From assembly GCA_017446045.1 (NCBI GenBank), contig JAFSRP010000061.1, positions 1-64,000 on the forward strand: 64,000 nt of DNA, read 5' to 3'. This DNA is from Lachnospiraceae bacterium (lineage in GTDB: Bacteria > Bacillota > Clostridia > Lachnospirales > Lachnospiraceae). Below, piece after piece: positions 27,245-43,472 of the stretch. The notes under the pieces are model-generated. The model searched no databases. It was given only the letters and a program-made list of their open reading frames with translations, and was not told where the DNA came from. Position 1 is the first letter of the stretch. Each line of letters starts with the position of its first letter. The position numbers were made by a program, and so were the translations under genes.

Positions 27245-28407
27245 GAGATCCGTTAAACAGTTTTATTGAGCAGATCCCGCCTTCCGGCATCCGCAGATTT
27301 TTTGATCTGGTCGCGGAAATGAATGATCCGGAAGTGGTGTCTCTCGGCGTCGGCGAGCCGGACTTTGACACGCCCTGGCACATCCGGGAGGAGGGCATTT
27401 ACGCGATCACCAAGGGAAAGACTTTCTACAGCGCGAATGCCGGCCTGATGGAACTCAGGAAGGAGATCTCCCGCTACACCGCCAGACACTACGGCGTGAC
27501 CTATGATCCCGCGACGGAGATCCTGGTCACCATCGGCGGTTCGGAAGCGATCGATGCATGTTTCCGGGCAATGCTGGATCCCGGCGATGAAGTGATCATT
27601 CCGGAACCCTGCTTCGTTTCTTATAAGCCCTGCGCGATCTTCGCAGGCGCAAAGCCGGTCGTGATCGACCTCAAGGCAGAGAACGAATTCCGTCTGCAGC
27701 CGGAGGAGCTGGAAGCAGCCATTACAGAAAAGTCCAAGATCCTCTTCCTTTCCTATCCCAACAATCCTACCGGTGCGGTCATGGGAAAGGCGGATCTGGA
27801 AAAGATCGCGGAGGTCGTGATCCGGCATGACCTGTTTGTGCTGTCCGATGAGATTTATGCAGCGCTGAGCTATACAGATGAACCCTTTACGAGTATCGCT
27901 TCGCTGCCCGGGATGCGGGAACGCACAGTCATCGTGAACGGTTTTTCCAAGGCCTTTGCCATGACCGGATGGCGTCTTGGCTATGCGACCGGTCCGGCAA
28001 GGATCGTAAAACAGATGATGAAGGTCCACCAGTTTGCCATCATGTGCCCGCCGACCATTTCCCAGTATGCCGCGATCGAAGCTCTCAGGAACGGAGACGA
28101 GGACGTGCTGTATATGCGCGGTGAGTATGACCAGCGCCGCCGCTTCCTCCTGAAGCGATTTGAAGAGATGGGGATCGACTGTTTTGAGGCAAAGGGTGCC
28201 TTTTATCTGTTCCCCTGCATCAAAAAGTTCGGCATGAGCTCCGATGAATTCGCGGAGCGGCTGCTGGCTGACCAGAAACTGGCTGTAGTGCCCGGCAGTG
28301 CTTTCGGTACTTCCGGGGAAGGATTTTTACGTATATCCTACGCCTATTCCCTCCGCGACCTCAAACGCGCCGTGGAAAGGATCGAGGCATTTGTATCGAA
28401 ACTGTGA
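27241..28407 (+). CDS. PLP-dependent aminotransferase, class I/II
   Basis: A 388-residue fold-type I aminotransferase. The Schiff-base lysine is Lys237 in VNGFSKAFAMTGWRLGY; SYPNNPTGAV and the LSDEIYAALSY run are also present. Such enzymes in Firmicutes act on aspartate, alanine or aromatic amino acids; the exact substrate cannot be set from sequence. It is coupled by ATGA overlap to the Lrp-type regulator and overlaps the ABC ATPase start, so it may feed an amino acid or amino sugar to the same pathway, although that is inference. Confidence 0.93.
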   Translation: MRDPLNSFIEQIPPSGIRRFFDLVAEMNDPEVVSLGVGEPDFDTPWHIREEGIYAITKGKTFYSANAGLMELRKEISRYTARHYGVTYDPATEILVTIGGSEAIDACFRAMLDPGDEVIIPEPCFVSYKPCAIFAGAKPVVIDLKAENEFRLQPEELEAAITEKSKILFLSYPNNPTGAVMGKADLEKIAEVVIRHDLFVLSDEIYAALSYTDEPFTSIASLPGMRERTVIVNGFSKAFAMTGWRLGYATGPARIVKQMMKVHQFAIMCPPTISQYAAIEALRNGDEDVLYMRGEYDQRRRFLLKRFEEMGIDCFEAKGAFYLFPCIKKFGMSSDEFAERLLADQKLAVVPGSAFGTSGEGFLRISYAYSLRDLKRAVERIEAFVSKL

Positions 28408-29759
28408 GCATGGACAGAGCCATTGACGTACGGAACGTCACCAAAATCTATCGCCTGTACGACCGGCCTGCCGACCGTCTGAAGGAGTCCCTGAGTCTGA
28501 CCAAAAAGAACTATCACAAGGATTTCTATGCGCTGCGGGACGTTTCGTTTGACGTGGAAAAAGGACAGTCTGTCGGCATTATCGGAACGAACGGTTCCGG
28601 TAAGTCGACCATGCTCAAGATCATCACCGGGGTGCTGACGCCAAGCGGCGGAGAGGTGCGGGTCGAGGGCAAGATCTCTGCCCTGCTGGAGCTGGGCGCC
28701 GGATTCAACATGGAGTACACCGGCATCGAGAATATTTATATGAACGGCACCATGATGGGCTTTACCAGGGCGGAGATGGAGCAGAAGATCCCGGAGATCC
28801 TGGAATTTGCCGATATCGGGGAGTTCGTACACCAGCCGGTCAAGTCCTATTCCTCGGGTATGTTCGTACGTCTGGCGTTCGCGCTTGCCATCAACGTCGA
28901 TCCCGAGATCCTGATCGTGGATGAAGCTCTGTCCGTAGGCGATATTTTCTTTCAGGCCAAGTGCTATCACCGGATGGATGAGCTCAGGAAAAAGGGGACC
29001 ACGATCCTGATGGTCACCCATGACATGAGCTCGGTGCTGAAGTACTGTGACAAGTGTATTCTCCTGAATGACGGGGAAAAGGTCGCCGAAGGCCGTCCCG
29101 GAGAGATGGTGGACCTGTACAAGAAGATCCTGGCCGGCCAGTATGACCAGCTCGAGGAAATGATCACCGAACGGGAGGCGGCAAACCGTCCTGACAGCCA
29201 GGCGGCAGGAGATGCGCGGCATTCTGTCCTGTCTTCGGCCATTGCGGGGACTGCAGGCGCTCCGGCAGGGAGCATGCGCGCTTCGATGACCATCAATCCC
29301 AACGTGAATGAATACGGCAACGGCAAAGCAGAAATCTATGATTTCGGCATTCTTGACAAGGATGGCCGCCTGACCAACCTGATCCTGAAGGGCGAACGCT
29401 TTACCATCCGGGAAAGGATCCGTTTCCATGAGCATATCGACGCGCCGATTTTTACCTATACGATCCGGGACAAAAAGGGTACGGACCTGACCGGGACGAA
29501 TACCATGTTCGAAGGCGCGGATGTCGGCAGCGTTGAAGCCGGTGACGAGTATGAAGCGGTATTTACCCAGAACATGGACCTCCAGGGCGGGGAATACCTG
29601 CTGAGCATGAGCTGCACGGGATTCGAGCAGGGCGAGCATGTGGTCTATCACCGGCTGTATGACCTCCTGAACCTGACCGTGATCTCCAATAAAAATACGG
29701 TGGGCGTATATGACATGAATTCCCAGGTCAGAGTCCGCCGGAATCCGCAGGAAGCATGA
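28404..29759 (+). CDS. Wzt-type polysaccharide ABC exporter ATPase with C-terminal substrate-binding domain
   Basis: A 451-residue ATPase of the Wzt/TagH group. Walker A is GTNGSGKST (about 61-69), the signature is SYSSGMFVRLAFAL and Walker B is ILIVDEALSVGD. A beta-rich C-terminal domain (about 295-445) corresponds to Wzt-C, which in ABC-exported O antigens binds the modified end of the glycan. A GTG at 28404 overlaps the aminotransferase stop; an ATG at 28410 is the alternative. Its stop overlaps the next ATG by 4 bases. The matching Wzm/TagG permease is not next to it or anywhere in the window. Confidence 0.93.
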   Translation: MSMDRAIDVRNVTKIYRLYDRPADRLKESLSLTKKNYHKDFYALRDVSFDVEKGQSVGIIGTNGSGKSTMLKIITGVLTPSGGEVRVEGKISALLELGAGFNMEYTGIENIYMNGTMMGFTRAEMEQKIPEILEFADIGEFVHQPVKSYSSGMFVRLAFALAINVDPEILIVDEALSVGDIFFQAKCYHRMDELRKKGTTILMVTHDMSSVLKYCDKCILLNDGEKVAEGRPGEMVDLYKKILAGQYDQLEEMITEREAANRPDSQAAGDARHSVLSSAIAGTAGAPAGSMRASMTINPNVNEYGNGKAEIYDFGILDKDGRLTNLILKGERFTIRERIRFHEHIDAPIFTYTIRDKKGTDLTGTNTMFEGADVGSVEAGDEYEAVFTQNMDLQGGEYLLSMSCTGFEQGEHVVYHRLYDLLNLTVISNKNTVGVYDMNSQVRVRRNPQEA

Positions 29760-32700
29760 ACGATTTCACCTATGATCTGATCGAAAAATATGAATCACTG
29801 CCCGACAGGGAGGCTGCCGACACAAAGATCCTGAGCGGAACAGACGACAGCCGGGTCTACTATGCCCTGAGTCCGGACAGGATCAACGCGGCAGAGGCCT
29901 TCCCCTGGAAGGATGATATGAGGGTCCTTCAGCTCGGTGCCTGCTGCGGTGCGCTTGTTCCTCTCTGCGACAGGGTGGCCCGCTGGGATATCCTGGACCC
30001 GGCTGAGGAAGAGCTAGCGCTGGTGCGGGCACGTTATCCCGAGTATGCCGGTGCCGCATCCCCGAAGCTCGGCCTGCGAACAGAAGCGGACAGCGCGGCA
30101 TATGACGCGGCAGTTCTTATGCTGTCAGCAGATAACAGTTATGTACGCCGGTATGGGTCGGAAGGTGAGGATGCGGCGGCACTGGCCAAAAGGGCCGTAT
30201 CTTTCCTCAGACCCGGCGGAGCGCTCATCCTGATCGCTGACAATGCCGGCGCGCTGAAGCTGGCTGCGGGTGAACTCCCGGACCCGGACACCCTGTATAT
30301 GGATGAAGCGACGGCGGTGAGCCTGCGGAAGGAACTTCCGTTCCGTTCATCGCAGCTCCTTTTCCCTTTGCCGGATGCCGCCTTTGCCGTCAATATTTAT
30401 TCGGAAGACCGGCTCCCGGCAGCGGGGGACTTCAAAGGCGTCTCCGAAAGCTTTCTCACGGAGCGCTGCACGCTCTGCAATGAAGAAGCTCTCTACGGGG
30501 CCCTGAGCCAGGCGGGCGTTTTCCCGCGTTTTGCGCCTTCCTATCTGCTGGTCTTCAGCGGAAAGCGGGAGGATGGGGAGATCTCCGCAGATCTTGACGC
30601 CAAAGCGTCTTCGGCTCCGGAGAAAGACAGGATGCCGCTGTATATCCGTTACAACCGCCGGCGGGCTGCTTCCCTGCAGCTGAAGACGGAGATCTTCGTC
30701 AGTGCGGCGGGAGAAAAATCAGTGAGGAAGACCGCCCTGACAAGGGCAGCCAATGGCCATGTGGAGGGTTTTCGGGAACGCTATACCCTGCTGGAAAGGA
30801 CGATGGACAAGAGGATCCGGATCCTTCCGCCTTCCTGCGGGTATACTCCCGACGGGCGCGCATACGCGGAGTTTCCGTTTGTCAGGGGCAAAGATCTCGG
30901 ACGTGTGCTTGCGGGACGTATTACAGAAGGAAAGGCACCCGCGGAGGAAATCCGGGAGATACTGGACCTGCTGCTTGGCGACAGCGGACAGCCCTGTCAC
31001 GATCTTGACGCGCTGTTTGAAAACATCATGGTGCAGGAAACGAAAGACGGCCTGCAGTATGTGCTGCTGGATTATGAATGGGTGTCTCCGGAACCGTATG
31101 AACGGCGTTTTGTCCTATGGCGGATCTTAAGCTACTGGTATGACGCGTACCGGCAGCAGCTTTATGCCTATGCGGACCGGCAGGCGTTCCTGTCGGAATT
31201 CGGCATCCAGCCGGAGGAAACGGATGCCATGGAAGCAAAAGAAGCCGCGTTTCAGGCTGAGGTCCGGGGCAGCGAAGCGGATCTCGCGGACCGCTTCCGC
31301 AAGCCGCACAAAACACCGGCGGATGTCCGTGCACAGGAAGCACGGCTGGAGGAATTCACGCAGTGGAATCTCCGTCTGCAGGATGAGATAGAAGAACATA
31401 AGGCAGCGCTCCGCAAGGAACGCGAAGTAGAGCGCCTGAGCCAGAACCATATCCGCAACATTGAAAAGATCAATGCTGCCCGGGAAGCTGAGATCGCGCA
31501 GCTTTCCGCGGAGGCAGACTATCTCCGGAAGCACCAGGGCATCGTCAGCCGTATCGTACACCGCTGCGTCGGCGCGCTGGACCGCTGGGCGCCGGCGGAA
31601 TCACGAAAGCGCAAGCTCATCAGGCTCACGAAGAACACAGTGCTGCACCCGTTCCGGCAGTGCCGGCTGTATCTGACCAAAGAAGGCAGAGACTATATCG
31701 CGGGCGATTTCAATGTCGGCGGCGAGTTTGCGGAAGGCGGTATCCTGACGCTTCCGGAAGCTTCGGACCCGCTCGTCTCTGTCATTATCCCTGCCTACAA
31801 CCAGGTAGCCTATACCTATGCCTGTGTACGTTCGATCCTTCAGAACACGGACTTTGGCGAGACTCCTTACGAGGTGATCCTGGCAGACGACGTTTCCACC
31901 GATGCCACTGCGGAGATCTCGCGCTATATCCACGGCATGGTGATCAGCCGGAACAGCTCGAATATGGGCTTTCTGAAGAACTGCAACCAGGCAGCGGCAA
32001 AAGCAAGAGGCAGATATCTTTTCTTCCTGAATAATGACACAAAGGTACATCCGGGATGGCTGAAAAGCCTCACGGACCTTATGGCTTCCGATCCTTCCAT
32101 CGGAATGACCGGTTCCAAACTGGTCTATCCGGACGGCCGCCTGCAGGAGGCGGGCGGGATCATATGGTCCGATGCCTCCGGCTGGAATTACGGCCGCCTG
32201 GATGATCCCGACAAGCCCGAATACAACTACGTCAAGGACGTGGATTATATTTCCGGCGCGGCGATCATGCTCTCCAGGGAACTGTGGGAGGAGATCGGGG
32301 GATTTGACGAACGTTATGCGCCCGCATACTGCGAGGATTCGGATCTGGCGTTTGAAGTGCGCAGGCACGGCAGGCGTGTGGTATATCAACCGGCTTCCGT
32401 CGTGACACACTTCGAGGGTATCTCCAACGGTACAGATGTGACCGGCACCGGACTGAAACGCTATCAGGTCGTCAACCAGCAGACCTTCCGCGAAAAGTGG
32501 GCGGAGGAACTGAAGAAACAGTCGGTCAACACCGGCGATCCCGATCCCTTCTGTGCGCGGGACCGCTCACAGAACAAGCCCTGTGTCGTGATCGTCGACC
32601 ACTATGTACCTACCTGGGACAGAGATGCGGGATCCCGTACGACATATCAGTACATCCGCATGTTCCTCAGGAAAGGCTTCAACGTCAAATTCGTCGGAGA

Positions 32701-33736
32701 CAATTTCCTTCATGAAGAACCGTATGCGGGCACGCTCCAGCAAATGGGCGTGGAGATCCTGTACGGGCCGGACTACCAGAACAACATTTTCGAATGGTTC
32801 CGGAAAAACAGTGCCAATATTGATTTCTGCTATCTGAACCGGCCGCACATTGCGGTAAAATATATCGATTTCCTCAAGGAAAACACGGATATCCGCTGCA
32901 TCTTCTACGGACATGACCTTCATTATCTGCGGCTCCTCAGAGAGTACGAGCTCAGCGGCGAGATCCGTAAAAAGAGGGAGTCGGATTACTGGAAGAGCGT
33001 CGAGTTCTCAGTCATGCAAAAGGCGGACATGATCTACTATCCTTCTCAGACCGAGATCGATGCGATCCATCATTTCCACCCGGAGTTCCCTGCCCGGGCC
33101 ATTACAGCTTACGTCTGGGACAGTTTTCCGGACAGGCAGCTTTCGGCGGAAGGATTTGAAAAACGGCATGATCTCCTGTTTGTGGGAGGCTTCAAACATC
33201 CGCCCAATGCCGACGGTGTGAAATGGTTCGCGGAGCGGATCTGGCCGAAGGTACATGCCGCCATACCGGACTGCCGTTTCCTTGTTGCAGGCTCGGGTGC
33301 CGGAGAGGATATCCTTTCCCTGGCATCAGAGGGCAGCGGGATCGAGGTATTGGGTTTCGTATCGGACGAACGCCTGCGGCAGCTTTATGAAGATTCCCGT
33401 CTGGTGGTGGTACCGCTGCGATACGGCGCCGGCGTCAAGGGGAAGGTCGTGGAGGCGGTCTATAACGGCTGTGTGATCGTAACGACTTCGGTCGGTGCCG
33501 AAGGCATTCCGGAAGCGGAAACGGTGATGAGCGTCACGGACCGGGATCCCGGACGGCTTTACGAACGGGAGCAGGAGGTGGCGGAATGCTTTGCGGATGA
33601 GGTCATCGCATTGTATACTTCGCCGGAGCGCTGCGCGGCGCTGAGCGCAGCCTGCTCGGACTATATCCGGACACATTACAGTGTGGATGCGGCTTGGAAC
33701 GTGATCGCTGCGGACTGGCAGACAAAGAAGGACTGA
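29756..33736 (+). CDS. Giant methyltransferase-like/kinase-like/coiled-coil/GT2/GT4 protein
   Basis: A 1326-residue cytoplasmic protein with five parts. A class I methyltransferase-like domain (about 1-235) has VLQLGACCGALVP and DILDP but is otherwise divergent. A kinase-like region (about 300-505) has LFENIMV and LLDYEWV in the places of catalytic-loop Asn and the DFG-type Asp. A coiled coil covers about 524-595. A GT2 domain (about 670-960) has SVIIPAYNQ, NNDTKVHPGW and YCEDSDLAFE. A GT4-like domain (about 985-1320) has DLLFVGGFKHPPN and GAGVKGKVVEAVYNG. The first three parts follow the order of WbdD, which caps polymannose O antigen by phosphorylation and methylation. It is coupled to the Wzt-like ATPase by ATGA overlap. 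Methyltransferase activity is doubtful. Confidence 0.85.
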   Translation: MNDFTYDLIEKYESLPDREAADTKILSGTDDSRVYYALSPDRINAAEAFPWKDDMRVLQLGACCGALVPLCDRVARWDILDPAEEELALVRARYPEYAGAASPKLGLRTEADSAAYDAAVLMLSADNSYVRRYGSEGEDAAALAKRAVSFLRPGGALILIADNAGALKLAAGELPDPDTLYMDEATAVSLRKELPFRSSQLLFPLPDAAFAVNIYSEDRLPAAGDFKGVSESFLTERCTLCNEEALYGALSQAGVFPRFAPSYLLVFSGKREDGEISADLDAKASSAPEKDRMPLYIRYNRRRAASLQLKTEIFVSAAGEKSVRKTALTRAANGHVEGFRERYTLLERTMDKRIRILPPSCGYTPDGRAYAEFPFVRGKDLGRVLAGRITEGKAPAEEIREILDLLLGDSGQPCHDLDALFENIMVQETKDGLQYVLLDYEWVSPEPYERRFVLWRILSYWYDAYRQQLYAYADRQAFLSEFGIQPEETDAMEAKEAAFQAEVRGSEADLADRFRKPHKTPADVRAQEARLEEFTQWNLRLQDEIEEHKAALRKEREVERLSQNHIRNIEKINAAREAEIAQLSAEADYLRKHQGIVSRIVHRCVGALDRWAPAESRKRKLIRLTKNTVLHPFRQCRLYLTKEGRDYIAGDFNVGGEFAEGGILTLPEASDPLVSVIIPAYNQVAYTYACVRSILQNTDFGETPYEVILADDVSTDATAEISRYIHGMVISRNSSNMGFLKNCNQAAAKARGRYLFFLNNDTKVHPGWLKSLTDLMASDPSIGMTGSKLVYPDGRLQEAGGIIWSDASGWNYGRLDDPDKPEYNYVKDVDYISGAAIMLSRELWEEIGGFDERYAPAYCEDSDLAFEVRRHGRRVVYQPASVVTHFEGISNGTDVTGTGLKRYQVVNQQTFREKWAEELKKQSVNTGDPDPFCARDRSQNKPCVVIVDHYVPTWDRDAGSRTTYQYIRMFLRKGFNVKFVGDNFLHEEPYAGTLQQMGVEILYGPDYQNNIFEWFRKNSANIDFCYLNRPHIAVKYIDFLKENTDIRCIFYGHDLHYLRLLREYELSGEIRKKRESDYWKSVEFSVMQKADMIYYPSQTEIDAIHHFHPEFPARAITAYVWDSFPDRQLSAEGFEKRHDLLFVGGFKHPPNADGVKWFAERIWPKVHAAIPDCRFLVAGSGAGEDILSLASEGSGIEVLGFVSDERLRQLYEDSRLVVVPLRYGAGVKGKVVEAVYNGCVIVTTSVGAEGIPEAETVMSVTDRDPGRLYEREQEVAECFADEVIALYTSPERCAALSAACSDYIRTHYSVDAAWNVIAADWQTKKD

Positions 33737-33746
33737 GGGACGGCTT

Positions 33747-34511
33747 TTGGATGCGAAGGAGCTGGTCAGGGCCAGGCTTGCGGAGCTGGACCGGCTGGCA
33801 TATGAACGGAATATCCTCAAATGCAGCGGCTTTTTAAGTTACTCTGAACAGCAGGCATTTCACCTGCTGGAGGCCGGCGGCTGTTTTATGACACAGACAC
33901 ATTTCCTGGACGGGGGATTCCCGGACGCGGAGCGCGCAGCGGCTTTTTTCCTGCCGGATTATATGGGGCGGGAAGAGGCTGTGGCAGCGGAGATCGCGGT
34001 GATCAGGGCATGTGCCGTCAGTGACAGATATGCCGGGGAGCTCACGCACAGGGATTACCTGGGCGCCCTGATGAATCTCGGTATCGAACGGGACTGCATC
34101 GGGGATATCCTCCTGGATGGGAGCAGCTGCACCATTTTCTGTACGCGGGAGCTCGCCGGATATATTGCGGAGAACCTTCTGAGGGTAAAGCATACTTCCG
34201 TACGGTGTGAGATCACTGAGGCTGCGGCACTTGACCTTAAGCCGCGTCTGGAAGAATGCCGTGTGAATGTGGCGTCGGAACGCGTTGATGCCGTGATCGC
34301 GGCGCTTTATAAGATGTCCCGCCAGAAGGCTGCCGGTCTTGTGGACGCAGAGCAGGTCTTTCTGAACGGCCTGACAGTCAGTGCTGCCGGGCGGCAGATG
34401 AAGGAAGGCGACCGGGTCTCGGTCCGCGGCTTCGGAAAGTTTATTTATGACGGCATTGACGGCAGCAGCAGGAAAGGCAGGCTGTTCGTCACAGTGCGGA
34501 AGTATACATAA
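33747..34511 (+). CDS. ylmH: YlmH-type S4 RNA-binding protein
   Basis: A 254-residue protein of the YlmH family. The N-terminal domain contains the family hallmark HRDYLGALMNLGIERDCIGDILL (about residues 98-120) and a C-terminal S4 RNA-binding domain starts at about residue 175 (SERVDAVIAALYKMSRQKAAGLV). In Bacillus it acts in ribosome quality control and is usually found in the sepF-ylmH-divIVA division cluster. Here it lies inside a polysaccharide operon. The likely start is a TTG at 33747, 7-8 bases after GAGGGA and 10 bases after the giant protein's stop; no in-frame ATG is available nearby. Confidence 0.88.
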   Translation: MDAKELVRARLAELDRLAYERNILKCSGFLSYSEQQAFHLLEAGGCFMTQTHFLDGGFPDAERAAAFFLPDYMGREEAVAAEIAVIRACAVSDRYAGELTHRDYLGALMNLGIERDCIGDILLDGSSCTIFCTRELAGYIAENLLRVKHTSVRCEITEAAALDLKPRLEECRVNVASERVDAVIAALYKMSRQKAAGLVDAEQVFLNGLTVSAAGRQMKEGDRVSVRGFGKFIYDGIDGSSRKGRLFVTVRKYT

Positions 34512-34552
34512 GGACGTCAAACCCCGGAATTATCAAAGAACAGGTGAAGATC

Positions 34553-35200
34553 ATGAATGAAAAGGTAAGGGCGATACTGGAGGAGCTGGTCACACGTTAT
34601 CCGTCTCTCGCCGGTCAGAAAGCAGAGATCGCGAAGGCCTATGAGATCCTGAAAAATTGCTACGACCGTGGCGGAAAGCTTCTGATCGCCGGCAACGGAG
34701 GGTCCTGTGCCGACAGCGAACATATCGTCGGGGAGCTGATGAAGGGATTCTGTAAAAAGCGTCCTCTGCCGGCCGACCTGCTTGCGCGTATTGCCGCAGC
34801 AGACCCCGACCCCGATGAAAGGCTTGCTTCAAAGCTGCAGCAGGGACTTCCGGCGATCGCGCTCACGGGACATAACGCGCTGAGTACGGCGTTCGTAAAC
34901 GATGTGGATGCGGAATATGCCTTTGCGCAGCAGATCGTAGGGTACGGAAGGCAGGGAGATGTATTTTTGGGGATCACCACCTCCGGAAACAGCAGGAACG
35001 TGCTGCGCGCCGCGGCAGTGGCAAAAGCCATGGAGCTGCAGGTGATCGCCCTGACCGGCCGGGACGGGGGACGCATCCGCGGACTGGCGGACTGTGCCGT
35101 TATCGTTCCGGAACAGGAGACCTTCAAGATCCAGGAGCTGCACCTTCCGGTCTATCACGCGCTTTGCCTGATGCTCGAGGAGACCTATTTCAGTAATTAA
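34553..35200 (+). CDS. gmhA: SIS-domain phosphosugar isomerase, GmhA-like
   Basis: A 215-residue SIS-domain protein close to sedoheptulose-7-phosphate isomerase (GmhA). AGNGGSCADSEHIVGELMKGF is the substrate loop, and HNALSTAFVNDV and GITTSGNSRNVLRAA complete the fold. The family converts sedoheptulose 7-phosphate to D-glycero-D-manno-heptose 7-phosphate, the first step to nucleotide heptose. No heptose kinase, phosphatase or nucleotidyltransferase is in the window, so the pathway would be completed elsewhere or the substrate differs. ATG 34553 has AGGTGA 6 bases upstream; a GTG at 34544 is less likely. Confidence 0.85.
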   Translation: MNEKVRAILEELVTRYPSLAGQKAEIAKAYEILKNCYDRGGKLLIAGNGGSCADSEHIVGELMKGFCKKRPLPADLLARIAAADPDPDERLASKLQQGLPAIALTGHNALSTAFVNDVDAEYAFAQQIVGYGRQGDVFLGITTSGNSRNVLRAAAVAKAMELQVIALTGRDGGRIRGLADCAVIVPEQETFKIQELHLPVYHALCLMLEETYFSN

Positions 35201-36049: not shown

Positions 36050-38254
36050 ATGCGGGAACTGATCGGTATACTGACAAGAGAAGAGAATGTCCGGATGCAG
36101 TACGAGATCCTCGTGATGCTGCTGGTCTTTTCCGTTCCCGCCCTGCGGCTCAAAGACCGGAAGAAACTGGCGGCCGTATGGTCTGCGTCTGCGGCTGTTT
36201 TCTGCTATCTCCACCGCATACTGCTTCCGGTGCTGCTCTCCGGACTCTATGTTTACTGCATTGCCGGTGTGATATGCGTCCTTCTTGATGCGGATATCCG
36301 GGCTTTTGTACGTCCTGGAAAGGCGCTTCTTAAAAGGCTCCGGCCTTATGCCGGACGACAGAGGCTTCCGTATACCGTGGTCATGGTGGTGATCCTCATG
36401 ATCCAGCTGTGCCGGATCAACATTGCGGTCGATTATGATTCCCTGCGCTACGGTCTCCGGTCAGACGTTCTGCTGACCGGCGGGCACGGACTGCGCGGTT
36501 TTTTTGAAAATACGGGACTGGTCAACCTGGTCTATACCTATCCGAAGGGTTTCGAGGTGCTGACCCGGCCCTTATATTTCGGGCATACCTGGGGTTATGT
36601 GCTCTGTGTGAATATATGGATCCTGCTGCTGATCCTGCTCCTTGGCGGCGCCATCGCGCGGGAACTGACCGGCTCTGCCGATGCGGAAGTCCTGGCGGCG
36701 AGCGGCCTGTCCCTGGTGCCCGGCATCACGAATATGGCAGTGACCGCCAAAAGCGACCTGATCACCCTGCTCTGCCAGCTGGCTTTTCTGTACTGCACGG
36801 TCTGTTATGTAAACCTTTCGCCTCCGCTGTGCCGGGATGCACAAGGTGGTGCAGCGTGCCTTTCAGAAGGGAGCGCAGAGGAAGAGAGGCGAAGACTTAC
36901 CGGCTGCGGCCTGGCAGCGCTGGTTCTGAGCTATGCCTTCAAGCCTACGGCCCTGGTGTTTTCTTCCCTGATCGGTGTGGCCGCACTGGTCTGCATCCTC
37001 CTATACGGGAAAAAGAGGAACATACATCTCGGTATCGGTGCCCGCGGGCTCCGGGTCCTGCTTCCGGCAGTTTTGTTTGCCGGGATTATGACAGCAAGGA
37101 CCTGGATCATAAGCGGGATGCCGTTTACCAGTGTTTTTTCCGGCCTGTTCCAAAGGCTTGGCATGTCACTGAACTATCCCTTCCGCATCCAGGCGGTGAA
37201 CAGCATGGAGCCGCGGACACTGACGCAGAGCATTCGCTTTGTCCTGACCCGGCTGGGAGGTCTCCTGCTGTGTCCGGTGGGCGAAGATATGCTGCATGTG
37301 CAGATGGCATGGGGCGGCCTGGTCTTTACACTGATGCTCGTCACTGTCTGTGCGGGGATCCGGCGCGCGCCCGGGTATATGAAAGAACTGAACCGGCTGC
37401 GGGAGGTCGGTCTTGCACAGCACTACGTCCTGCCCGAAGGCCGGGACGGGCGGTTTTCCGTCGAAGGACTGAAGCTGATCACATCTGCTGCCGCGGTGAC
37501 CGGGATCATGTCCCTTTTATCCGTCGGCCTGCTGTACCAGCTGGACGGCAATTACTACATGCTCCTGTATGCGCTGGCAGTGATCCTGGGCAGTACGGTC
37601 CTCTATACCTGCGCTGCATATGAGACGTCCCCGCTCGGGAAAAACCTCCCTGTGATCTTCAGTGCCCGCAGCAACCGGGCAGTGATCCTGCTGGCAGCAG
37701 TGATGATCTGGTTCACGGCCTGCAGCGGCTGGGCCGGACCGGTGGGTTTTACGCCGGTGGACCCTGTCAACCGGGGTTATTATAATCATGAAGCGGAGTA
37801 CGGCATTACAGATCCGCTGCATTGGGATAAACATACACGTGTGATCGCCTTTGCCGAAGAGCCTGACTGTTATCTTCTGAAGGGAAGAGTCGAGAGCTGG
37901 GTAGATATCGACGGCAGCGGCGGCAACGTATACCTGACCGATACCAAGCTCAACATCTTCAAGGAATACTGCACCTTTGCAAAGACAGACTATATCTATG
38001 CCGACCTGCGATTCCTCCATGATCCGGAGGATCCGCGCCGGCAGAGAGCGGATACGCTCTTTGTCTATATGCTGGAGGACGGAGATTTCGAAAGCGTCGT
38101 CCTGGCAGAAAACAGCTCTTCAAAGATCTTCGCGAAGATCGACAAGGAACGGATGGCGGAGCCGTGGGAGGTACCGCTGTCCGAAGAAAAACTGGAGAGG
38201 ACAGCAGAGCAGTGCGCCTGGTATGAGAGCATCGGGGGCTACGATACACAGTGA
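36050..38254 (+). CDS. Large polytopic membrane protein, probable GT-C-type glycosyltransferase
   Basis: A 734-residue protein with at least ten hydrophobic segments and a C-terminal soluble part (about 590-734). An extracellular-type loop after the third helix has VDYDSLRYGLRSDVLLTGGHG, where acidic residues could serve as the GT-C catalytic motif. I do not recognise the family. Its place among glycosyltransferases suggests use of a polyprenyl-linked sugar outside the membrane, but polymerase or flippase roles cannot be excluded. It is not an ABC-2 permease by size or topology. Confidence 0.65.
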   Translation: MRELIGILTREENVRMQYEILVMLLVFSVPALRLKDRKKLAAVWSASAAVFCYLHRILLPVLLSGLYVYCIAGVICVLLDADIRAFVRPGKALLKRLRPYAGRQRLPYTVVMVVILMIQLCRINIAVDYDSLRYGLRSDVLLTGGHGLRGFFENTGLVNLVYTYPKGFEVLTRPLYFGHTWGYVLCVNIWILLLILLLGGAIARELTGSADAEVLAASGLSLVPGITNMAVTAKSDLITLLCQLAFLYCTVCYVNLSPPLCRDAQGGAACLSEGSAEEERRRLTGCGLAALVLSYAFKPTALVFSSLIGVAALVCILLYGKKRNIHLGIGARGLRVLLPAVLFAGIMTARTWIISGMPFTSVFSGLFQRLGMSLNYPFRIQAVNSMEPRTLTQSIRFVLTRLGGLLLCPVGEDMLHVQMAWGGLVFTLMLVTVCAGIRRAPGYMKELNRLREVGLAQHYVLPEGRDGRFSVEGLKLITSAAAVTGIMSLLSVGLLYQLDGNYYMLLYALAVILGSTVLYTCAAYETSPLGKNLPVIFSARSNRAVILLAAVMIWFTACSGWAGPVGFTPVDPVNRGYYNHEAEYGITDPLHWDKHTRVIAFAEEPDCYLLKGRVESWVDIDGSGGNVYLTDTKLNIFKEYCTFAKTDYIYADLRFLHDPEDPRRQRADTLFVYMLEDGDFESVVLAENSSSKIFAKIDKERMAEPWEVPLSEEKLERTAEQCAWYESIGGYDTQ

Positions 38255-38337: not shown

Positions 38338-39990
38338 ATGTCAAAAGATCCTGAGAGCCGAAAACTGAATATCGCAGCGGATCTCCTCCTGATGCTCCTG
38401 ATTGCCGGCTTCGCCTTCTGGGTGAACCGGGACATCCGCATCAAGGGCCTGTACATGGACGACCTGTATATGTGGTCCTGCTACGGCGAGCAGAGCATCT
38501 GGGAGTTTGCCTTCCCGATCGGGACATCAACAAGGTTCCGGCCGGTCTACTGGCTGGCGACCTACCTGCAGATGATGATCGTCGGTACTCATATCACACG
38601 TTTTGTGACCTTCAATATCGTCTGTAATATCCTCGTGGCATGGCTGGTCTTTCTGCTGGCAAAACGCCTGTCCGGCTGCCGTTATGCGGGTGCAGCGTCT
38701 GCTGTCTGTTATCTGGCGTCGCGTTTTGCCTATTACCAGATCGGGCAGGCCCTCGGCCTGATGGAGACGATGGCACTGCTGATGGCAATCGTGATCCTCT
38801 ATCTGCTGTTTTTATACATCCGTGCCGGGCGGGACAAACCGGAGAACGGAGCGGATACAGACTTTACCGGGGGGTCTCTCAGCCGGCATGAGAGCCGCAG
38901 CCGTCACAGACGGGAAGACAGTTCCGGCAGGACCTGTTTCCTGCCGGCGGTGGTGCTCTACTTTCTGCTGGCGTTCACACATGAACGTTACATCAGCCTG
39001 TTCCCGCTGTTCTATTATGCGCTGACCATCCGGGCTTTAACGGAGCCGAAGGGAATGCGGATGCGCAGTATACGAGACAGGGCGCTCCTTTGGGCGGCGC
39101 CGGCGGTTGCCCTGGCGCTGATCGTGCTGATCAGGAGCTTTGCCATCGGCAAGGCGCTTCCGGCGGGAACCGGGGGCACCGAAGTCACGGAGACATTCCA
39201 TATCGGGGAGTGCCTGCGTTACTGTATCAGCCAGGTCTTCTATATATTCGGAGTCAACGACGGACCTGAACATCTGAACGGGCTTCCCTGGGACCAGACG
39301 CCGCCGGAGATCAAAAGGATGACGAAGTTCAGCGTACTGGCCATCGGCCTGATCTGCATCGCCTTTGCGCTGAAAGTAATCCGGGAACTTGTTACGGAAC
39401 ACAGGGAAGAGGCGGGGAAACATGTGGCGGAAAGCCTGCTGTTCGGCGGTTTCATTGCCCTTTGCATCGGCTGTTCCTCCGTGACGATCCGTGTGGAGAT
39501 GCGCTGGATCTATGTGTCTTATACGGCAGCGCTGCTGTTTGCCGCGTACATGATCGGAGAGCTTTCCGGAACCGGCGGGCTCACGGTACGAAGATCTCTC
39601 GTGACGGCTCTGTTCCTGGTCTATGCGGTACTGTCGGTCCGCTGCAACCTGTTTTACCGCGGGTATTATTCCCGCCTGTATTTCTGGCCCAACCAGCTCC
39701 GCATGAATTCCCTTGCCGAGCAGACAGTGGAAAAATACGGGACGGACGGGATCTTCGGGAAAGATATCTATATCCTGGAAAACACTTATGAAATGACGGA
39801 TTTCTACGCCCGTACCTTTTTCAAGACCTATGATCCGGAAAAGAAAGCGGAAGGGACCAGGGTGCTGTTTGCAGACAGCATCGCATCGATCCCGCCGGAG
39901 GATCTTAAGGAAGGACGGGTGCTGGTGCTGGAGGAAGTGCCGGAGGAAAATGCGTACCGGGACATCACGGATTCGGTGATACCGGAATGA
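38338..39990 (+). CDS. Polytopic membrane protein, probable GT-C-type glycosyltransferase
   Basis: A 550-residue integral membrane protein with about ten hydrophobic segments and a C-terminal globular tail (from about residue 440). After the first helix comes KGLYMDDLYMWSCYGEQS, an acidic DD pair typical of GT-C enzymes that use polyprenyl-phosphate sugars. A basic, low-complexity loop lies at about residues 165-200. It resembles GtrII-type glucosyltransferases in outline, not clearly in sequence. The 83-base gap before it carries a 10-bp hairpin (about 38291-38311) without a T-run, the largest spacing in the operon. Confidence 0.65.
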   Translation: MSKDPESRKLNIAADLLLMLLIAGFAFWVNRDIRIKGLYMDDLYMWSCYGEQSIWEFAFPIGTSTRFRPVYWLATYLQMMIVGTHITRFVTFNIVCNILVAWLVFLLAKRLSGCRYAGAASAVCYLASRFAYYQIGQALGLMETMALLMAIVILYLLFLYIRAGRDKPENGADTDFTGGSLSRHESRSRHRREDSSGRTCFLPAVVLYFLLAFTHERYISLFPLFYYALTIRALTEPKGMRMRSIRDRALLWAAPAVALALIVLIRSFAIGKALPAGTGGTEVTETFHIGECLRYCISQVFYIFGVNDGPEHLNGLPWDQTPPEIKRMTKFSVLAIGLICIAFALKVIRELVTEHREEAGKHVAESLLFGGFIALCIGCSSVTIRVEMRWIYVSYTAALLFAAYMIGELSGTGGLTVRRSLVTALFLVYAVLSVRCNLFYRGYYSRLYFWPNQLRMNSLAEQTVEKYGTDGIFGKDIYILENTYEMTDFYARTFFKTYDPEKKAEGTRVLFADSIASIPPEDLKEGRVLVLEEVPEENAYRDITDSVIPE

Positions 39991-40024
39991 GACCGGCAAC
40001 GTGCCGGAAACGGGAGTGTATGCC

Positions 40025-41476
40025 ATGAGGCAGCGAGAACGCATTCACAAAATCAAATACGCCCTGATCCCGCTCCTCGGGATCCTGTTCTGGCTGTGGT
40101 ATGTGAAGACCGCTGCTGCCGATGTCGTCTATTCCGACTATATCCGCCTGGTGCATGATTACCTGCCTGATGTGACGGACCCGTCGAAGTTTCTGGTACC
40201 GGATGTACTGACGCGGATCCCTGCGGCTTTCCTGGCCAGACTGATCAATGTACAGCGGTTCGGGTACTCGGTGACGTTTGACAGGATGCTCACCATTGCC
40301 GGAATGGGCCTCGTCGCCCTGGTCCTTGCCATTTACATGTATCGCCAGAATATCGGGATCCGCTGGCAGCTGGCGGTGGGCATCGTACTGTTTTCTTTGA
40401 ATAAATGGGAGATCCTGCTCAACGGGACAGCCTGGACGCATGTATTCAGCTTCGGATTATTTTATGTAAACTATATGCTCCTTGACCTGCTCTGGACGGG
40501 TGAATCGGATGCCAAGCAGGAACTGATGCTGTGCCTCATGCCGTTTGTCTGGTTGCTGTTTGCAGGGGAATACATCGCTTCCTATGCCGCAACGATGCTC
40601 CTGGTAAGCTTCCTGGGCTATCTTGCCGGCGGTGACGGCAGCTGGCAGAGCAGGAGCAAAAAGAGCATGTTCCGCGGTATCATGGTCATGACAGCAGCGG
40701 CGCTTGCCCTGTACCTGCTGAGCCGTCATTTTGCCGTATGGGAACATGCGGGAAGTACGGATATGAGTCTTGCGGAGGTCATGAGATCCAGCCCCTGGTT
40801 TTTGCCGCGCTTCTTTATCAAGAGTTTTGCCGGCACGGTGGTCGGACAGGAAACGGCTGCTTCTTTCGCCGGAGGCGCCCCGCTTCCGGATGCGGCGATC
40901 CTGCTGACGGGGCTGATCGTGCTGGCTGCTTATCTATTTGCATTGATCCTGTATTTCAGCGGTGATCTGATGGACCGGACGGTCTTTCCGCTCATCCTGC
41001 TGATCTCCGGGATGATCAACCATGTGCTGGTGACAGCCGGCCGGTGGATCTTTCTCAGCGAAAGTTATGCGATGAGCTCCCGCTACGGCGGGCAGTTTAT
41101 GATCGGGATCACGGGGATCCTGCTGGTGTTCGCGCTGTACGGAAGCAGCCGGAAACGGGGGGAAAGACGTGCGGCTCAGCGGCGCAGGACCCGTATCATG
41201 GCGGCAGCGGCGGCGGTTTCGGTTTTCATTGCTGCGGGAAACTGCTATACTACCTATCAGGAGATCCGGAAAGCGCCCTACCGCGAACAGAACTACGAAC
41301 GTATGGCGGCGGCTGTACTGCAGTATGAAACATACCCGGAGGAGGAACTTCTCGGGATCATGGAGTGGCACAAGGACCCGGCGGTACTGTACGATGCGCT
41401 GGGGATCCTGAAGGAGAACCGGCTGAATGTATTCCGCACGCCGGTGCTGCAGGCGGAACCGGAAGCACAGAATTAG
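40025..41476 (+). CDS. Polytopic membrane protein of the polysaccharide locus
   Basis: A 483-residue membrane protein with about ten hydrophobic segments. Like its neighbour it has an acidic pair-containing loop after the first helix (AADVVYSDYIRLVHDYLPDV). I do not recognise the family; it may be a third GT-C-type enzyme. ATG 40025 is chosen because GGGAG lies 8 bases upstream; the frame extends to 40001 without a site. The three consecutive large membrane proteins probably complete or decorate the glycan on the outer face of the membrane. Confidence 0.6.
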   Translation: MRQRERIHKIKYALIPLLGILFWLWYVKTAAADVVYSDYIRLVHDYLPDVTDPSKFLVPDVLTRIPAAFLARLINVQRFGYSVTFDRMLTIAGMGLVALVLAIYMYRQNIGIRWQLAVGIVLFSLNKWEILLNGTAWTHVFSFGLFYVNYMLLDLLWTGESDAKQELMLCLMPFVWLLFAGEYIASYAATMLLVSFLGYLAGGDGSWQSRSKKSMFRGIMVMTAAALALYLLSRHFAVWEHAGSTDMSLAEVMRSSPWFLPRFFIKSFAGTVVGQETAASFAGGAPLPDAAILLTGLIVLAAYLFALILYFSGDLMDRTVFPLILLISGMINHVLVTAGRWIFLSESYAMSSRYGGQFMIGITGILLVFALYGSSRKRGERRAAQRRRTRIMAAAAAVSVFIAAGNCYTTYQEIRKAPYREQNYERMAAAVLQYETYPEEELLGIMEWHKDPAVLYDALGILKENRLNVFRTPVLQAEPEAQN

Positions 41477-41501
41477 GAAACAGGCTACGGAGGAACAGAA
41501 A

Positions 41502-42272
41502 ATGAAGGTAGTGATTCTGGCAGGCGGGCTGGGGACCCGTATCAGTGAAGAGAGCCATCTCAGGCCGAAGCCCATGATAGAGATCGGCGACCAGCCGATC
41601 CTGTGGCATATCATGAAGTATTATGCCTCCTACGGGTTCGACGAGTTTATTATCTGTGCCGGTTACAAGCAGTATGTGATCAAGGAATATTTTGCCGAGT
41701 ATTTTCTGCACAATTCCGACGTCACCTTCGATCTGGCCAACAACGGGATCACGATCCACAACAACAATTCCGAGCAGTGGAAGGTCAGCGTCATCGATAC
41801 CGGACTGCATACGATGACCGGAGGGCGTATACGCCGTATCCGTCCGTATGTAGGCGACGAGCCGTTCATGCTGACCTATGGTGACGGGCTCTGCACCGTG
41901 GACCTCAAAGCACTGGAGGAATTCCACCGCTCTCACGGAAAGACCGCAACCATTACGACCGTCAATATTTCCGAAATGAAGGGCGTGCTGGAGGTGAATG
42001 ACGGCGGTCAGGTGACTTCCTTCCGGGAAAAGGAGGACCGTGACGCGTCGCTGATCAACGGCGGTTTTATGGTATTCAACAAGGAGATCTTTGATTATCT
42101 GGAAAATGACGAGACGATCCTGGAGCGGGAGCCTTTAAGCCGCCTGAGTGCGGAAGGGCAGCTGATGAGCTATTATCATCCCGGATTCTGGCAGTGCATG
42201 GATACCCAGCGTGAGAAGCAGAAGCTGGAAGAATATTGGGCTTCCGGAAAAGCTCCCTGGAAGAGGTGGTAA
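41502..42272 (+). CDS. rfbF: Glucose-1-phosphate cytidylyltransferase
   Basis: A 256-residue nucleotidyltransferase. AGGLGTRISEESHLRPKPMIEIG is the signature of RfbF, and MLTYGDGL holds the metal-binding Asp. It makes CDP-glucose from CTP and glucose 1-phosphate, the entry step to CDP-3,6-dideoxyhexoses. ATG 41502 has GGAGGA upstream at good spacing, while the frame extension to 41427 overlaps the previous gene. rfbG and rfbH follow in order. Confidence 0.96.
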   Translation: MKVVILAGGLGTRISEESHLRPKPMIEIGDQPILWHIMKYYASYGFDEFIICAGYKQYVIKEYFAEYFLHNSDVTFDLANNGITIHNNNSEQWKVSVIDTGLHTMTGGRIRRIRPYVGDEPFMLTYGDGLCTVDLKALEEFHRSHGKTATITTVNISEMKGVLEVNDGGQVTSFREKEDRDASLINGGFMVFNKEIFDYLENDETILEREPLSRLSAEGQLMSYYHPGFWQCMDTQREKQKLEEYWASGKAPWKRW

Positions 42273-42323
42273 GCATCTGCCGGCGGGAGAAGTACGGCAC
42301 CTGCCGCGAACGAGGTATCGGAT

Positions 42324-43460
42324 ATGGTGAACTTTGAAGAACTGAAGGCATTTTACAGCGGAAAAAAGGTACTGATGACCGGACATACCGGCTTTAAGGG
42401 CAGCTGGCTGACCGTGATCCTGTCTCTTTTGGGCGCGAAGGTCTACGGATATGCCCTGAAGGCGAACACGGATCCCTGCCTGTTTGATATCCTGTACGGC
42501 AGCGGTATGTCTTCAAGATCGGAGACGGAGCTCCATGTACGTCTCCCGGGCAGTGCCCGCATGCCGGAAAGCATGACGGAGAGCCATATTGCGGATATCC
42601 GCGATATGGATGAGCTGGAGTCCTACTATAACCGTGTTGAGCCGGATATCGTGCTCCATCTGGCGGCGCAGCCGCTGGTCCGTGAAAGTTACCGTATTCC
42701 CAGGGAGACCTATGAGATCAATGTCATGGGTACGGTGAACGTGCTGGAGTGCGTGCGCCGGCATCCGTGCTGCGGTTCCTTCCTGAATGTCACGACAGAC
42801 AAGGTGTATCTCAATGAGGAACGTCCGGATTATAAATACCGCGAGGACGACAAGCTAGACGGGTATGATCCTTACGCCAATTCCAAATCATGTTCGGAAC
42901 TCGTGACCCACAGCTATGCGGATGCCTTCCTGAAAGCAGCCGGAGTGGCGGTATCCACTGCGAGGGCCGGCAATGTGATCGGCGGCGGTGATTTCAGCCA
43001 GGACAGGATCATACCGGACTGCGTCCGCGCCGCGGTCAGCCATCGCAGGATCGTAGTGAGAAATCCCCATAGCATACGTCCTTATCAGCATGTTTTCGAG
43101 CCGCTTTTTGTCTATCTGACCATAGCCATGCGGCAGGCACAGGATCCGTCATTAGCCGGATGGTACAACGTCGGACCGGACGATGCCGACTGTGTCACGA
43201 CCGGGCAGTTGTGCGATCTCTTTACAGCTGCGTACGGTGAAGGGATCGGGTGGGAGTCTCCGGAGATCCCTTCCGGACCGCATGAAGCCGGACTCCTGAA
43301 GCTGGACAATCACAAGATCCGCACAGTTTTCGGATGGGAGCCGGTATGGAATATCGATCGGGCGGTCGGCGCAGTCGCGGACTGGACGAAAGCCTGGGTC
43401 CGCAGCAACGAGGCTGCCAATGAGGAAATGCTCCGGCAGATCCGTGAGTACACTCAATAA
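42324..43460 (+). CDS. rfbG: CDP-glucose 4,6-dehydratase
   Basis: A 378-residue extended SDR enzyme. The NAD-binding loop is TGHTGFKGSW, and VTTDKVY with YDPYANSK supplies the Tyr-x3-Lys catalytic pair. It converts CDP-glucose to CDP-4-keto-6-deoxyglucose. A longer-than-usual loop lies at about residues 60-85. It sits between rfbF and rfbH as in Salmonella and Yersinia O-antigen loci. Confidence 0.95.
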   Translation: MVNFEELKAFYSGKKVLMTGHTGFKGSWLTVILSLLGAKVYGYALKANTDPCLFDILYGSGMSSRSETELHVRLPGSARMPESMTESHIADIRDMDELESYYNRVEPDIVLHLAAQPLVRESYRIPRETYEINVMGTVNVLECVRRHPCCGSFLNVTTDKVYLNEERPDYKYREDDKLDGYDPYANSKSCSELVTHSYADAFLKAAGVAVSTARAGNVIGGGDFSQDRIIPDCVRAAVSHRRIVVRNPHSIRPYQHVFEPLFVYLTIAMRQAQDPSLAGWYNVGPDDADCVTTGQLCDLFTAAYGEGIGWESPEIPSGPHEAGLLKLDNHKIRTVFGWEPVWNIDRAVGAVADWTKAWVRSNEAANEEMLRQIREYTQ

Positions 43461-43472
43461 CAGGAGCAGAAC

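What the first reader, a model, noticed from the sequence alone, without database searches (positions are those of the whole stretch)
29756..33736. WbdD-like capping module fused to two glycosyltransferases, coupled to a Wzt with a substrate-binding domain
Seen: one 1326-residue frame with methyltransferase-like, kinase-like, coiled-coil, GT2 and GT4 regions, whose ATG overlaps the stop of a Wzt-type ATPase that has a C-terminal extra domain. Known: in ABC-exported O antigens such as E. coli O8/O9a, WbdD (methyltransferase, kinase, coiled coil) caps the chain and Wzt-C recognises the cap. Inference: this Firmicute may couple chain synthesis, length control by the coiled coil and export in one protein. 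The methyltransferase motif is degenerate, so the cap may be phosphate or the domain may be structural. Related methyltransferase/kinase-like/GT proteins occur in other Firmicutes, so the parts are not unique; the capping-export idea is the untested part.
Basis: partly seen in the sequence, partly recalled or inferred. Interest (0 to 1): 0.75.

Follow-up and report, generated by a model that had tools for sequence, protein, structure and literature searches.

The report
Gram-positive sugar-chain building and capping protein
A gut-type Gram-positive bacterium carries one large protein that probably both builds a surface sugar chain and stops it with a phosphate tag which the neighbouring exporter recognises; a close counterpart is already known from a Klebsiella O antigen, so this looks like a new Gram-positive variant, not a new kind of machine.

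Summary
In detail: a 1326-residue frame (29756-33736) starts in the stop codon of a Wzt ATPase with a genuine Wzt_C domain (E 2e-44). Domain order: methyltransferase-like, kinase-like, coiled coil, GT2, GT4. Half of 100 sampled genera of the family carry a relative; among the best 80 of 221 relatives in named genomes, 79 lie beside a Wzt_C ATPase (the 80th is cut by its contig end). The kinase catalytic Asp, Asn and metal Asp are invariant in 81 of 81 rows. The nearest characterised system is not WbdD but K. pneumoniae O7 ORF6, which caps its chain with methylphosphate and is fused to a coiled coil and two GTs; the link runs through a Pseudomonas protein that matches the published O7 SAM-site numbering six of six. 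Gram-positive Geobacillus WsaE (methyltransferase plus two GTs beside wzm-wzt) is a second precedent. New here: this kinase type in Gram-positives, a GT2+GT4 polymerase, a permease gene unlinked from Wzt, and a clade whose SAM motif erodes under an invariant kinase, predicting a phosphate-only cap. Structure prediction was off, so folds rest on profiles. Verdict: new variant of a known kind.

The parts
28404..29759 (+). Wzt-type ABC ATPase (451 aa) of a polysaccharide exporter
   Evidence: ABC_tran E 1e-22 and Wzt_C E 2.4e-44; ATPase half matches PDB 8dku and TarH/TagH chains
29304..29717 (+). Wzt_C carbohydrate-binding domain, the proposed reader of the cap
   Evidence: PF14524 positions 2-143; residues 291-451 match 2r5o_A (named there 'Putative ATP binding component of ABC-transporter'; recalled as E. 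coli O9a Wzt-C) E 3.4e-6 and 8dku_A (recalled as Aquifex Wzt) E 5e-4
29756..33736 (+). 1326-aa terminator-polymerase fusion protein
   Evidence: open frame; same fusion in relatives such as L062-L071
29756..30580 (+). methyltransferase-like domain, residues about 1-275
   Evidence: aligned with relatives' class I methyltransferase domains
29924..29953 (+). divergent SAM motif I (VLQLGACCGA, residues 57-66)
   Evidence: consensus VLEVGSGCGA in the canonical relatives; variable in the window's clade
30635..31273 (+). kinase-like domain, residues 294-506
   Evidence: profile A4 matches kinases in the PDB; profile A1 matches the Pseudomonas O7-type protein
30728..30730 (+). K325, putative beta-3 lysine
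   Evidence: K in 80 of 81 rows, one gap
31007..31024 (+). D418..N423, putative catalytic Asp and Asn
   Evidence: 81 of 81 rows each; corresponds to O7 ORF6 D441 by way of Pseudomonas D443
31070..31081 (+). D439-Y-E-W442, putative metal-binding Asp motif
   Evidence: D, E and W in 81 of 81 rows
31298..31585 (+). coiled coil, residues about 515-610, putative length ruler
   Evidence: period 3.50, 0 of 2000 shuffles, computed on residues 520-610; spacing between flanking motifs 112-117 residues in the 63 of 80 loci measured
31586..31750 (+). conserved basic linker (RKRK...HP...LY...EGR), residues about 611-665
   Evidence: conserved columns
31766..32425 (+). GT2 glycosyltransferase domain
   Evidence: PF00535 E 1.3e-22; best match among 8 test GT sequences is the second GT2 module of the Pseudomonas O7-type protein, 91 bits against 34 for the first
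32576..33733 (+). GT4-type glycosyltransferase domain
   Evidence: PF13692 E 3.6e-22 at residues 1138-1270; none of the 8 test GT sequences matched it

Best explanation
The protein is a Gram-positive, O7-ORF6-type terminator-polymerase. Its GT2 and GT4 domains extend a lipid-linked surface polysaccharide (probably rhamnose-rich) on the cytoplasmic side. A coiled coil of nearly fixed length holds the kinase domain at a distance from them. When the chain end reaches the kinase it is phosphorylated, which stops growth. The Wzt_C domain of the ATPase encoded by the overlapping gene recognises the tagged end, and Wzm-Wzt exports the chain. In the window's clade the methyltransferase domain is kept but has lost the usual SAM motif, so the cap is more likely phosphate than methylphosphate. 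Shown here: architecture, homology, conservation, gene linkage. Inferred from characterised homologues: capping, ruler function, Wzt recognition. Inferred with less support: rhamnose, and a phosphate-only cap.
For: Homology to O7 ORF6: a canonical methyltransferase-kinase of the same family (L053) matches a Pseudomonas asturiensis plasmid protein (1457 aa, two C-terminal GT2 domains, next to Wzm and Wzt_C genes) at 27.6%, E 2e-40, over 85% of the query. The kinase-coiled-coil profile A1, built without any proteobacterial row, finds it independently (E 2.1e-7; hhalign 93%, E 3.2e-7). Its Y28, Y66, G91, G93, E112, Y158 coincide 6 of 6 with the published O7 SAM-site numbering, and D443 lines up with O7 D441, whose Ala mutant is inactive. 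Kinase residues: D418, N423, D439, E441, W442 in 81 of 81 rows. Linkage: Wzt_C in 79 of 80 loci; 48 of 50 genomes with the module have Wzt_C against 13 of 50 without, and in 46 of the 48 the two matches are under 6 kb apart. Erosion: in the window's 17-row group, 10 of 10 inspected kinase columns are invariant, while motif I position 59 shows 7 residue types among 15 aligned rows, 2 rows have a gap there and 2 gave no methyltransferase match. In 12 of 12 pairwise comparisons the methyltransferase domain is less conserved than the kinase domain (59 against 60% with L062, 51 against 60% with L063, down to 26 against 33% with L136). Phosphorylation alone suffices to end O9a chains (PMC3482155 discussion passage). 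Rhamnose: an RmlC match lies 39-428 bp before the Wzm match in 34 of the 42 loci with Wzm, and RmlC is directly upstream of Wzm in the window's genome.
Against: No structure was predicted (tool off). The O7 ORF6 sequence itself was not available; the link goes through the Pseudomonas protein and published residue numbers. The A1 profile did not match the second plasmid record, Citrobacter (1 of 2 matched). I saw neither WbdD nor 7pd7 (CgnL) among the 60 of 82 PDB rows shown for the methyltransferase profile. The window's own methyltransferase and kinase domains match no Pfam family. 2 of 50 module-bearing genomes lack a Wzt_C match and 2 more have it on another contig. In the phylum sample 2 of 7 loci fetched (L154, L158) show no Wzt_C ATPase within the 20 kb, and a third (L155) shows an ATPase without a detected Wzt_C. 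Departures from GxGxG at position 63 are common in the whole family (D in 39 of 78 rows), so a changed motif need not mean a dead enzyme. The GT donor sugars are unknown.
Confidence: 0.7

Rival explanations
1. The same machine (a sub-case of the 0.7 above, and its odds are a share of that), but the methyltransferase is still active despite its altered motif, and the cap is methylphosphate as in K. pneumoniae O7.
For: The domain is retained in full length. D81 (D or E in 15 of 15), D117 and N163 (15 of 15) are conserved in the window's clade. Motif variants are common in the family, and some relatives keep VLEIGSGYG-type motifs.
Against: The second glycine is C, A, D or H in 9 of 15 aligned clade rows; 2 further rows have a gap at motif I and 2 gave no methyltransferase match. 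The domain is less conserved than the kinase in 12 of 12 comparisons.
Confidence: 0.3
2. The N-terminal half is only a scaffold that positions the polymerase near Wzt; there is no capping.
For: Neither N-terminal domain of the window protein is recognised by Pfam; the SAM motif is eroded.
Against: Kinase catalytic residues are invariant in 81 of 81 rows; the Wzt_C reader domain is kept beside the module in 79 of 80 loci.
Confidence: 0.1
3. The kinase phosphorylates something other than the chain end, such as an internal sugar or the lipid-linked primer.
For: The acceptor is unknown; I found no end-group data for this family in the searches made.
Against: Homology to O7 ORF6, which acts on the terminal rhamnose; linkage to Wzt_C.
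Confidence: 0.12
4. A WbdD orthologue.
For: Same order: methyltransferase, kinase, coiled coil, beside Wzt_C.
Against: The O7-type kinase is described as quite different from WbdD's in sequence and structure (PMC11231755); I saw no WbdD in the 60 PDB rows shown for either domain profile; WbdD has three domains and none is a GT (PMC3482155 passage).
Confidence: 0.05

Closest known systems
Klebsiella pneumoniae O7 ORF6 (PMC11231755: sections 8 and 10 whole, part 1 of sections 11 and 13)
   Same: Methyltransferase, kinase not recognisable by sequence with essential Asp, coiled coil, two C-terminal GTs in one protein (GT modules run to residue 1414); wzm-wzt in the same cluster; rhamnose donors.
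   Different: O7 has a CBM between kinase and coiled coil and two GT2 modules; here the aligned frame runs from kinase to coiled coil and the pair is GT2 plus GT4. The SAM motif is divergent here. Gram-positive host. The paper calls the termination strategy widespread in bacteria and lists orthologues from alpha- and gammaproteobacteria, cyanobacteria and a Methanoculleus; its main text holds no Firmicutes, Bacillota, Clostridi- or Gram-positive.
Pseudomonas asturiensis plasmid pCC1524 WP_024686765.1 (L142)
   Same: Methyltransferase and kinase homologous to modules of the window's family; Wzm-Wzt_C immediately upstream; GTs at the C-terminus.
   Different: Two GT2 modules; intact SAM motif; Gram-negative; annotated only as glycosyltransferase.
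E. coli O9a WbdD (PMC3482155, passages read)
   Same: Methyltransferase plus kinase plus coiled coil that ends the chain and feeds a Wzt with carbohydrate-binding domain.
   Different: Eukaryotic-type kinase; no GT domains, the mannosyltransferase is a separate protein (WbdA).
Geobacillus stearothermophilus WsaE (PMC2943079 and PMC3898925, passages read)
   Same: Gram-positive; methyltransferase fused to two rhamnosyltransferases; wzm, wzt and wsaE genes overlap; cap proposed to be read by Wzt.
   Different: No kinase is described in the passages read; 2-O-methyl cap; its sequence was not compared here.
Klebsiella O12 WbbB (described in the passages of PMC11231755 read; Kdo recalled)
   Same: Single protein with polymerase GTs, coiled-coil ruler and terminator.
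   Different: Terminator is a GT of its own family (Kdo transferase, recalled), not a kinase.

Membership tests
O7 ORF6-type methyltransferase-kinase terminator-polymerase | N-terminal methyltransferase homologous to O7 ORF6-N | tested here: met
   Through relatives: L053 against Pseudomonas E 2e-40; Pseudomonas residues match O7 numbering 6 of 6. O7 sequence itself not available.
O7 ORF6-type methyltransferase-kinase terminator-polymerase | SAM-binding motif E/DxGxGxG | tested here: not met
   Window has QLGACCG; canonical relatives have EVGSGCG.
O7 ORF6-type methyltransferase-kinase terminator-polymerase | Pfam-negative kinase domain with catalytic Asp equivalent to D441 | tested here: met
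   D418 aligned to Pseudomonas D443; 81 of 81 rows; kinase hits in the PDB.
O7 ORF6-type methyltransferase-kinase terminator-polymerase | CBM between kinase and coiled coil | tested here: inconclusive
   The window's kinase runs straight into the coiled coil in the alignments; no structure available.
O7 ORF6-type methyltransferase-kinase terminator-polymerase | Coiled coil between terminator and GT modules | tested here: met
   Period 3.50, 0 of 2000 shuffles.
O7 ORF6-type methyltransferase-kinase terminator-polymerase | Two C-terminal GT2 modules | tested here: not met
   One GT2 and one GT4-type domain.
O7 ORF6-type methyltransferase-kinase terminator-polymerase | Wzt ATPase gene in the same cluster | tested here: met
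   Overlapping Wzt gene with Wzt_C. That O7 Wzt has a Wzt_C domain was not checked; the Pseudomonas one has.
O7 ORF6-type methyltransferase-kinase terminator-polymerase | Wzm permease gene in the same cluster | tested here: not met
   The Wzm orthologue lies 120 kb away on the same contig; beside Wzt in 42 of 80 relatives.
O7 ORF6-type methyltransferase-kinase terminator-polymerase | Phosphorylates and methylates the chain end | not testable with these tools
   Needs biochemistry.
WbdD (O8/O9a) | Eukaryotic-type kinase domain related to WbdD's | tested here: inconclusive
   Profile hits are various kinases, WbdD not seen among the 60 shown; structure comparison not possible.
WbdD (O8/O9a) | Separate polymerase, no GT domains in the protein | tested here: not met
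   GT2 and GT4 fused.
Wzt with carbohydrate-binding domain | C-terminal Wzt_C domain above the curated cut-off | tested here: met
   151.2 bits against 30.4.
WsaE-type methyltransferase-GT-GT | Methyltransferase fused to two rhamnosyltransferases, no kinase | tested here: not met
   A kinase domain and coiled coil lie between. That WsaE has no kinase is read from its described three domains.

The most novel reading that the evidence does not exclude
In one clade of Lachnospiraceae the methylphosphate terminator has become a kinase-only terminator: the methyltransferase fold is kept as a scaffold, the cap is a bare phosphate read by Wzt_C, and the functional unit that evolution holds together is Wzt plus terminator-polymerase, while the permease gene has moved away.
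Probability: 0.4. Interest if true: 0.6.

Novelty: new variant of a known kind. Interest (0 to 1): 0.45.

Why it matters
It would extend a chain-length and export checkpoint worked out for Gram-negative O antigens to a common family of Gram-positives (Lachnospiraceae by the titles of the nearest relatives), where 50 of 100 sampled genera carry the module. It gives a natural series, intact to eroded SAM motif under an invariant kinase, for asking whether methylation of the cap is needed for recognition by Wzt. It also names the pair to purify first: Wzt_C with its own terminator, encoded by overlapping genes.

Tried and rejected

Rejected: an assembly artefact (same fusion in relatives); a chance coiled coil; the idea that the separate permease only reflects a broken MAG contig: of 17 genomes chosen from the 38 loci without Wzm in their flanks, 15 have a Wzm-like gene outside the fetched stretch, among them that of L074, whose title calls its record a complete chromosome. 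A second ABC-2 permease of the window's genome (L005) was compared and is not the Wzm orthologue: no meaningful match to Wzm or to four relatives' Wzm. A profile including the coiled coil matched unrelated coiled-coil proteins best in the PDB, at E 0.04. phmmer of the GT4 domain gave nothing under E 0.06.

Not in print, as far as searched: the ten paper searches returned listings in which I saw no description of this Lachnospiraceae family; subscription papers are mostly missing from that library. Papers: PMC11231755 sections 8 and 10 whole, first part of sections 11 and 13, passages by search; PMC3482155, PMC9445017, PMC10112845, PMC2943079, PMC3898925 passages only; others listing only. Clarke 2004/2011 and other works cited in these were not seen.

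Full report
WHAT IS THERE. The frame at 29756-33736 is open for 1326 codons and starts inside the stop codon of a 451-aa Wzt ATPase (ATGA overlap). The ATPase has a strong Wzt_C domain, related by sequence to PDB 2r5o and 8dku. Pfam recognises GT2 and GT4-type domains in the C-terminal half of the long protein and nothing in residues 1-660.

RELATIVES. In 100 genomes of the same family, one per genus by the tally and the window's own included, 50 encode a relative of residues 1-660 and 61 have a Wzt_C protein. 48 of the 50 have both, against 13 of the 50 without the module; in 46 of the 48 the two matches lie under 6 kb apart on one contig. The genomes are related, so the Fisher value (5e-14) overstates independence. 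I fetched 20 loci, mostly the stronger of the 49 other genomes with a match; all 20 show Wzm, Wzt_C, methyltransferase-like and kinase-like frames together (in L058 the kinase is seen in the alignment, not by BLAST). The arrangement varies: methyltransferase and kinase may be separate genes or fused, with or without the coiled-coil-GT2-GT4 part. A scan of named genomes found 221 relatives and returned the best 80. By title 55 of the 80 are Lachnospiraceae, 11 Clostridiaceae, 1 Fusobacteriaceae and 13 have no family; the three nearest (L062-L064) are Lachnospiraceae. Wzt_C is present in 79 of 80, the other being cut by its contig end. In a sample of 299 genomes of the phylum, 8 match the kinase profile at E 1e-5, the own genome included, 4 of them outside the family. 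Of the 7 other loci fetched, 4 have Wzt_C nearby, one an ATPase without detected Wzt_C, two neither.

DOMAINS. On 81 rows the kinase keeps D418, N423, D439, E441 and W442 without exception, K325 in 80 with one gap. A 19-row profile of this domain, which includes two proteobacterial rows, gives 133 PDB matches up to E 10; 58 of the 60 shown are kinases, phosphotransferases or titin/twitchin, 2 are Cry6Aa; 14 have E below 0.01, best JAK1 chains E 1.5e-4, a choline kinase E 0.0017. In the two alignments printed the catalytic Asp and Asn positions coincide. The methyltransferase domain matches Methyltransf_11 in 39 of 87 rows, but not in the window. The coiled coil has period 3.50, and the distance from the kinase-end motif to the RKRK motif is 112-117 residues in the 63 of 80 loci where both were found, most often 113: a ruler of nearly fixed length, if it is one.

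PRECEDENT. K. pneumoniae O7 ORF6 (PMC11231755) has a methyltransferase, a kinase not recognisable by sequence, a CBM, a coiled coil and two GT2 modules; it adds phosphate, and then methyl in part, to the terminal rhamnose, and D441A is inactive. Its sequence was not in my collections. A Pseudomonas plasmid protein bridges the gap. It is found by tblastn with a canonical module of the window's family (L053; 27.6%, E 2e-40) and independently by the kinase-coiled-coil profile that contains no proteobacterial row (E 2.1e-7; hhalign 93%); that profile did not match the second plasmid record, Citrobacter. The Pseudomonas protein carries Y28, Y66, G91, G93, E112 and Y158 at the very positions published for O7, and D443 where O7 has D441. 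Window D418 aligns there. So the N-terminal half is homologous to the O7 terminator. A Gram-positive precedent for the general idea is Geobacillus WsaE, a methyltransferase with two rhamnosyltransferase domains next to wzm-wzt (PMC2943079 passages).

WHAT DIFFERS. First, the SAM motif. Canonical relatives read VLEVGSGCG; among 78 methyltransferase rows position 59 is Q in 48 and E in 23, and position 63 is D in 39 and G in 31, so some departure is common in the whole family. In the 17-row group that holds the window (SH-aLRT 85, not starred), position 59 takes 7 residue types in 15 rows and position 63 five plus gaps; 2 of those 15 have a gap at motif I and 2 more rows gave no methyltransferase match, while ten inspected kinase columns are invariant in 17 of 17. 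The columns were chosen from the published SAM and kinase residues and from conserved positions, so this contrasts catalytic sites. Over whole domains the methyltransferase is less conserved than the kinase in 12 of 12 pairs, by 1 point with L062 (59 against 60%) and 4-13 points with the others, and both far less than GT2 (92% with L062). WbdD work states that phosphorylation is sufficient to terminate chains, so a phosphate-only cap could function. Second, the polymerase is GT2 plus GT4; the GT2 is nearer to the second GT2 module of the Pseudomonas protein (91 bits) than to the first (34). Third, the permease. Wzm lies beside Wzt in 42 of 80 loci. In the window's genome it is 120 kb away, directly behind RmlC; the other ABC-2 permease of that genome is unrelated to Wzm. 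Of 17 genomes chosen from the 38 loci without a neighbouring Wzm, 15 have a Wzm-like gene elsewhere at 59-80% identity. The adjacency that stays is Wzt with the terminator. On the tree the presence of Wzm changes at least 8 times and fused against split at least 5 times.

PRODUCT. An RmlC match sits 39-428 bp before the Wzm match in 34 of 42 loci, and in none of the 38 without Wzm, which points to dTDP-rhamnose. Ruminococcus gnavus, recalled to be of the same family, has a glucorhamnan with 1,2- and 1,3-linked rhamnose (PMC10112845 passage); I did not test whether its locus is of this kind. Rhamnose is an inference.

VERDICT. The finding is real and the capping-export reading is the best one, but the machine is a known kind. 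What is new is its Gram-positive branch with an atypical kinase, a different polymerase pair, an unlinked permease and an eroding methyltransferase.

Noticed in passing
41427-44828: Glucose-1-phosphate cytidylyltransferase (TIGR02623, over its cut-off), an NAD-dependent sugar dehydratase and a DegT-type aminotransferase/dehydrase in a row: looks like a CDP-dideoxyhexose pathway.
   Followed up: no
44872-45774: LicD-family protein, possible phosphocholine or phosphosugar transfer to the surface polymer.
   Followed up: no
36050-38254, 38338-39990, 40001-41476: Three multi-span membrane proteins (11, 7 and 8 hydrophobic segments); no Pfam match for the first and third, a weak PMT_2 match for the second; possible GT-C transferases or polymerases.
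   Followed up: partly
33747-34511: YlmH-like RNA-binding S4 protein directly after the fusion gene in a polysaccharide cluster.
   Followed up: no
34544-35200: SIS-domain protein of the sedoheptulose-7-phosphate isomerase type, below the curated NCBIfam cut-offs.
   Followed up: no
L011 5403-6796 (outside the window, same contig): RmlC directly followed by the Wzm orthologue, about 120 kb from Wzt; UDP-galactopyranose mutase and a DUF2142 membrane protein lie upstream.
   Followed up: partly
L155 5807-11955: Outside the family: a 1382-aa methyltransferase-kinase protein near an ATPase of 258 aa without detected Wzt_C; the stretch between was not annotated.
   Followed up: no
29756-33736 against L062-L064: GT2 is 90-92% identical while the methyltransferase and kinase domains are 47-60% identical: the cap-making half diverges several times faster than the GT2.
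   Followed up: partly
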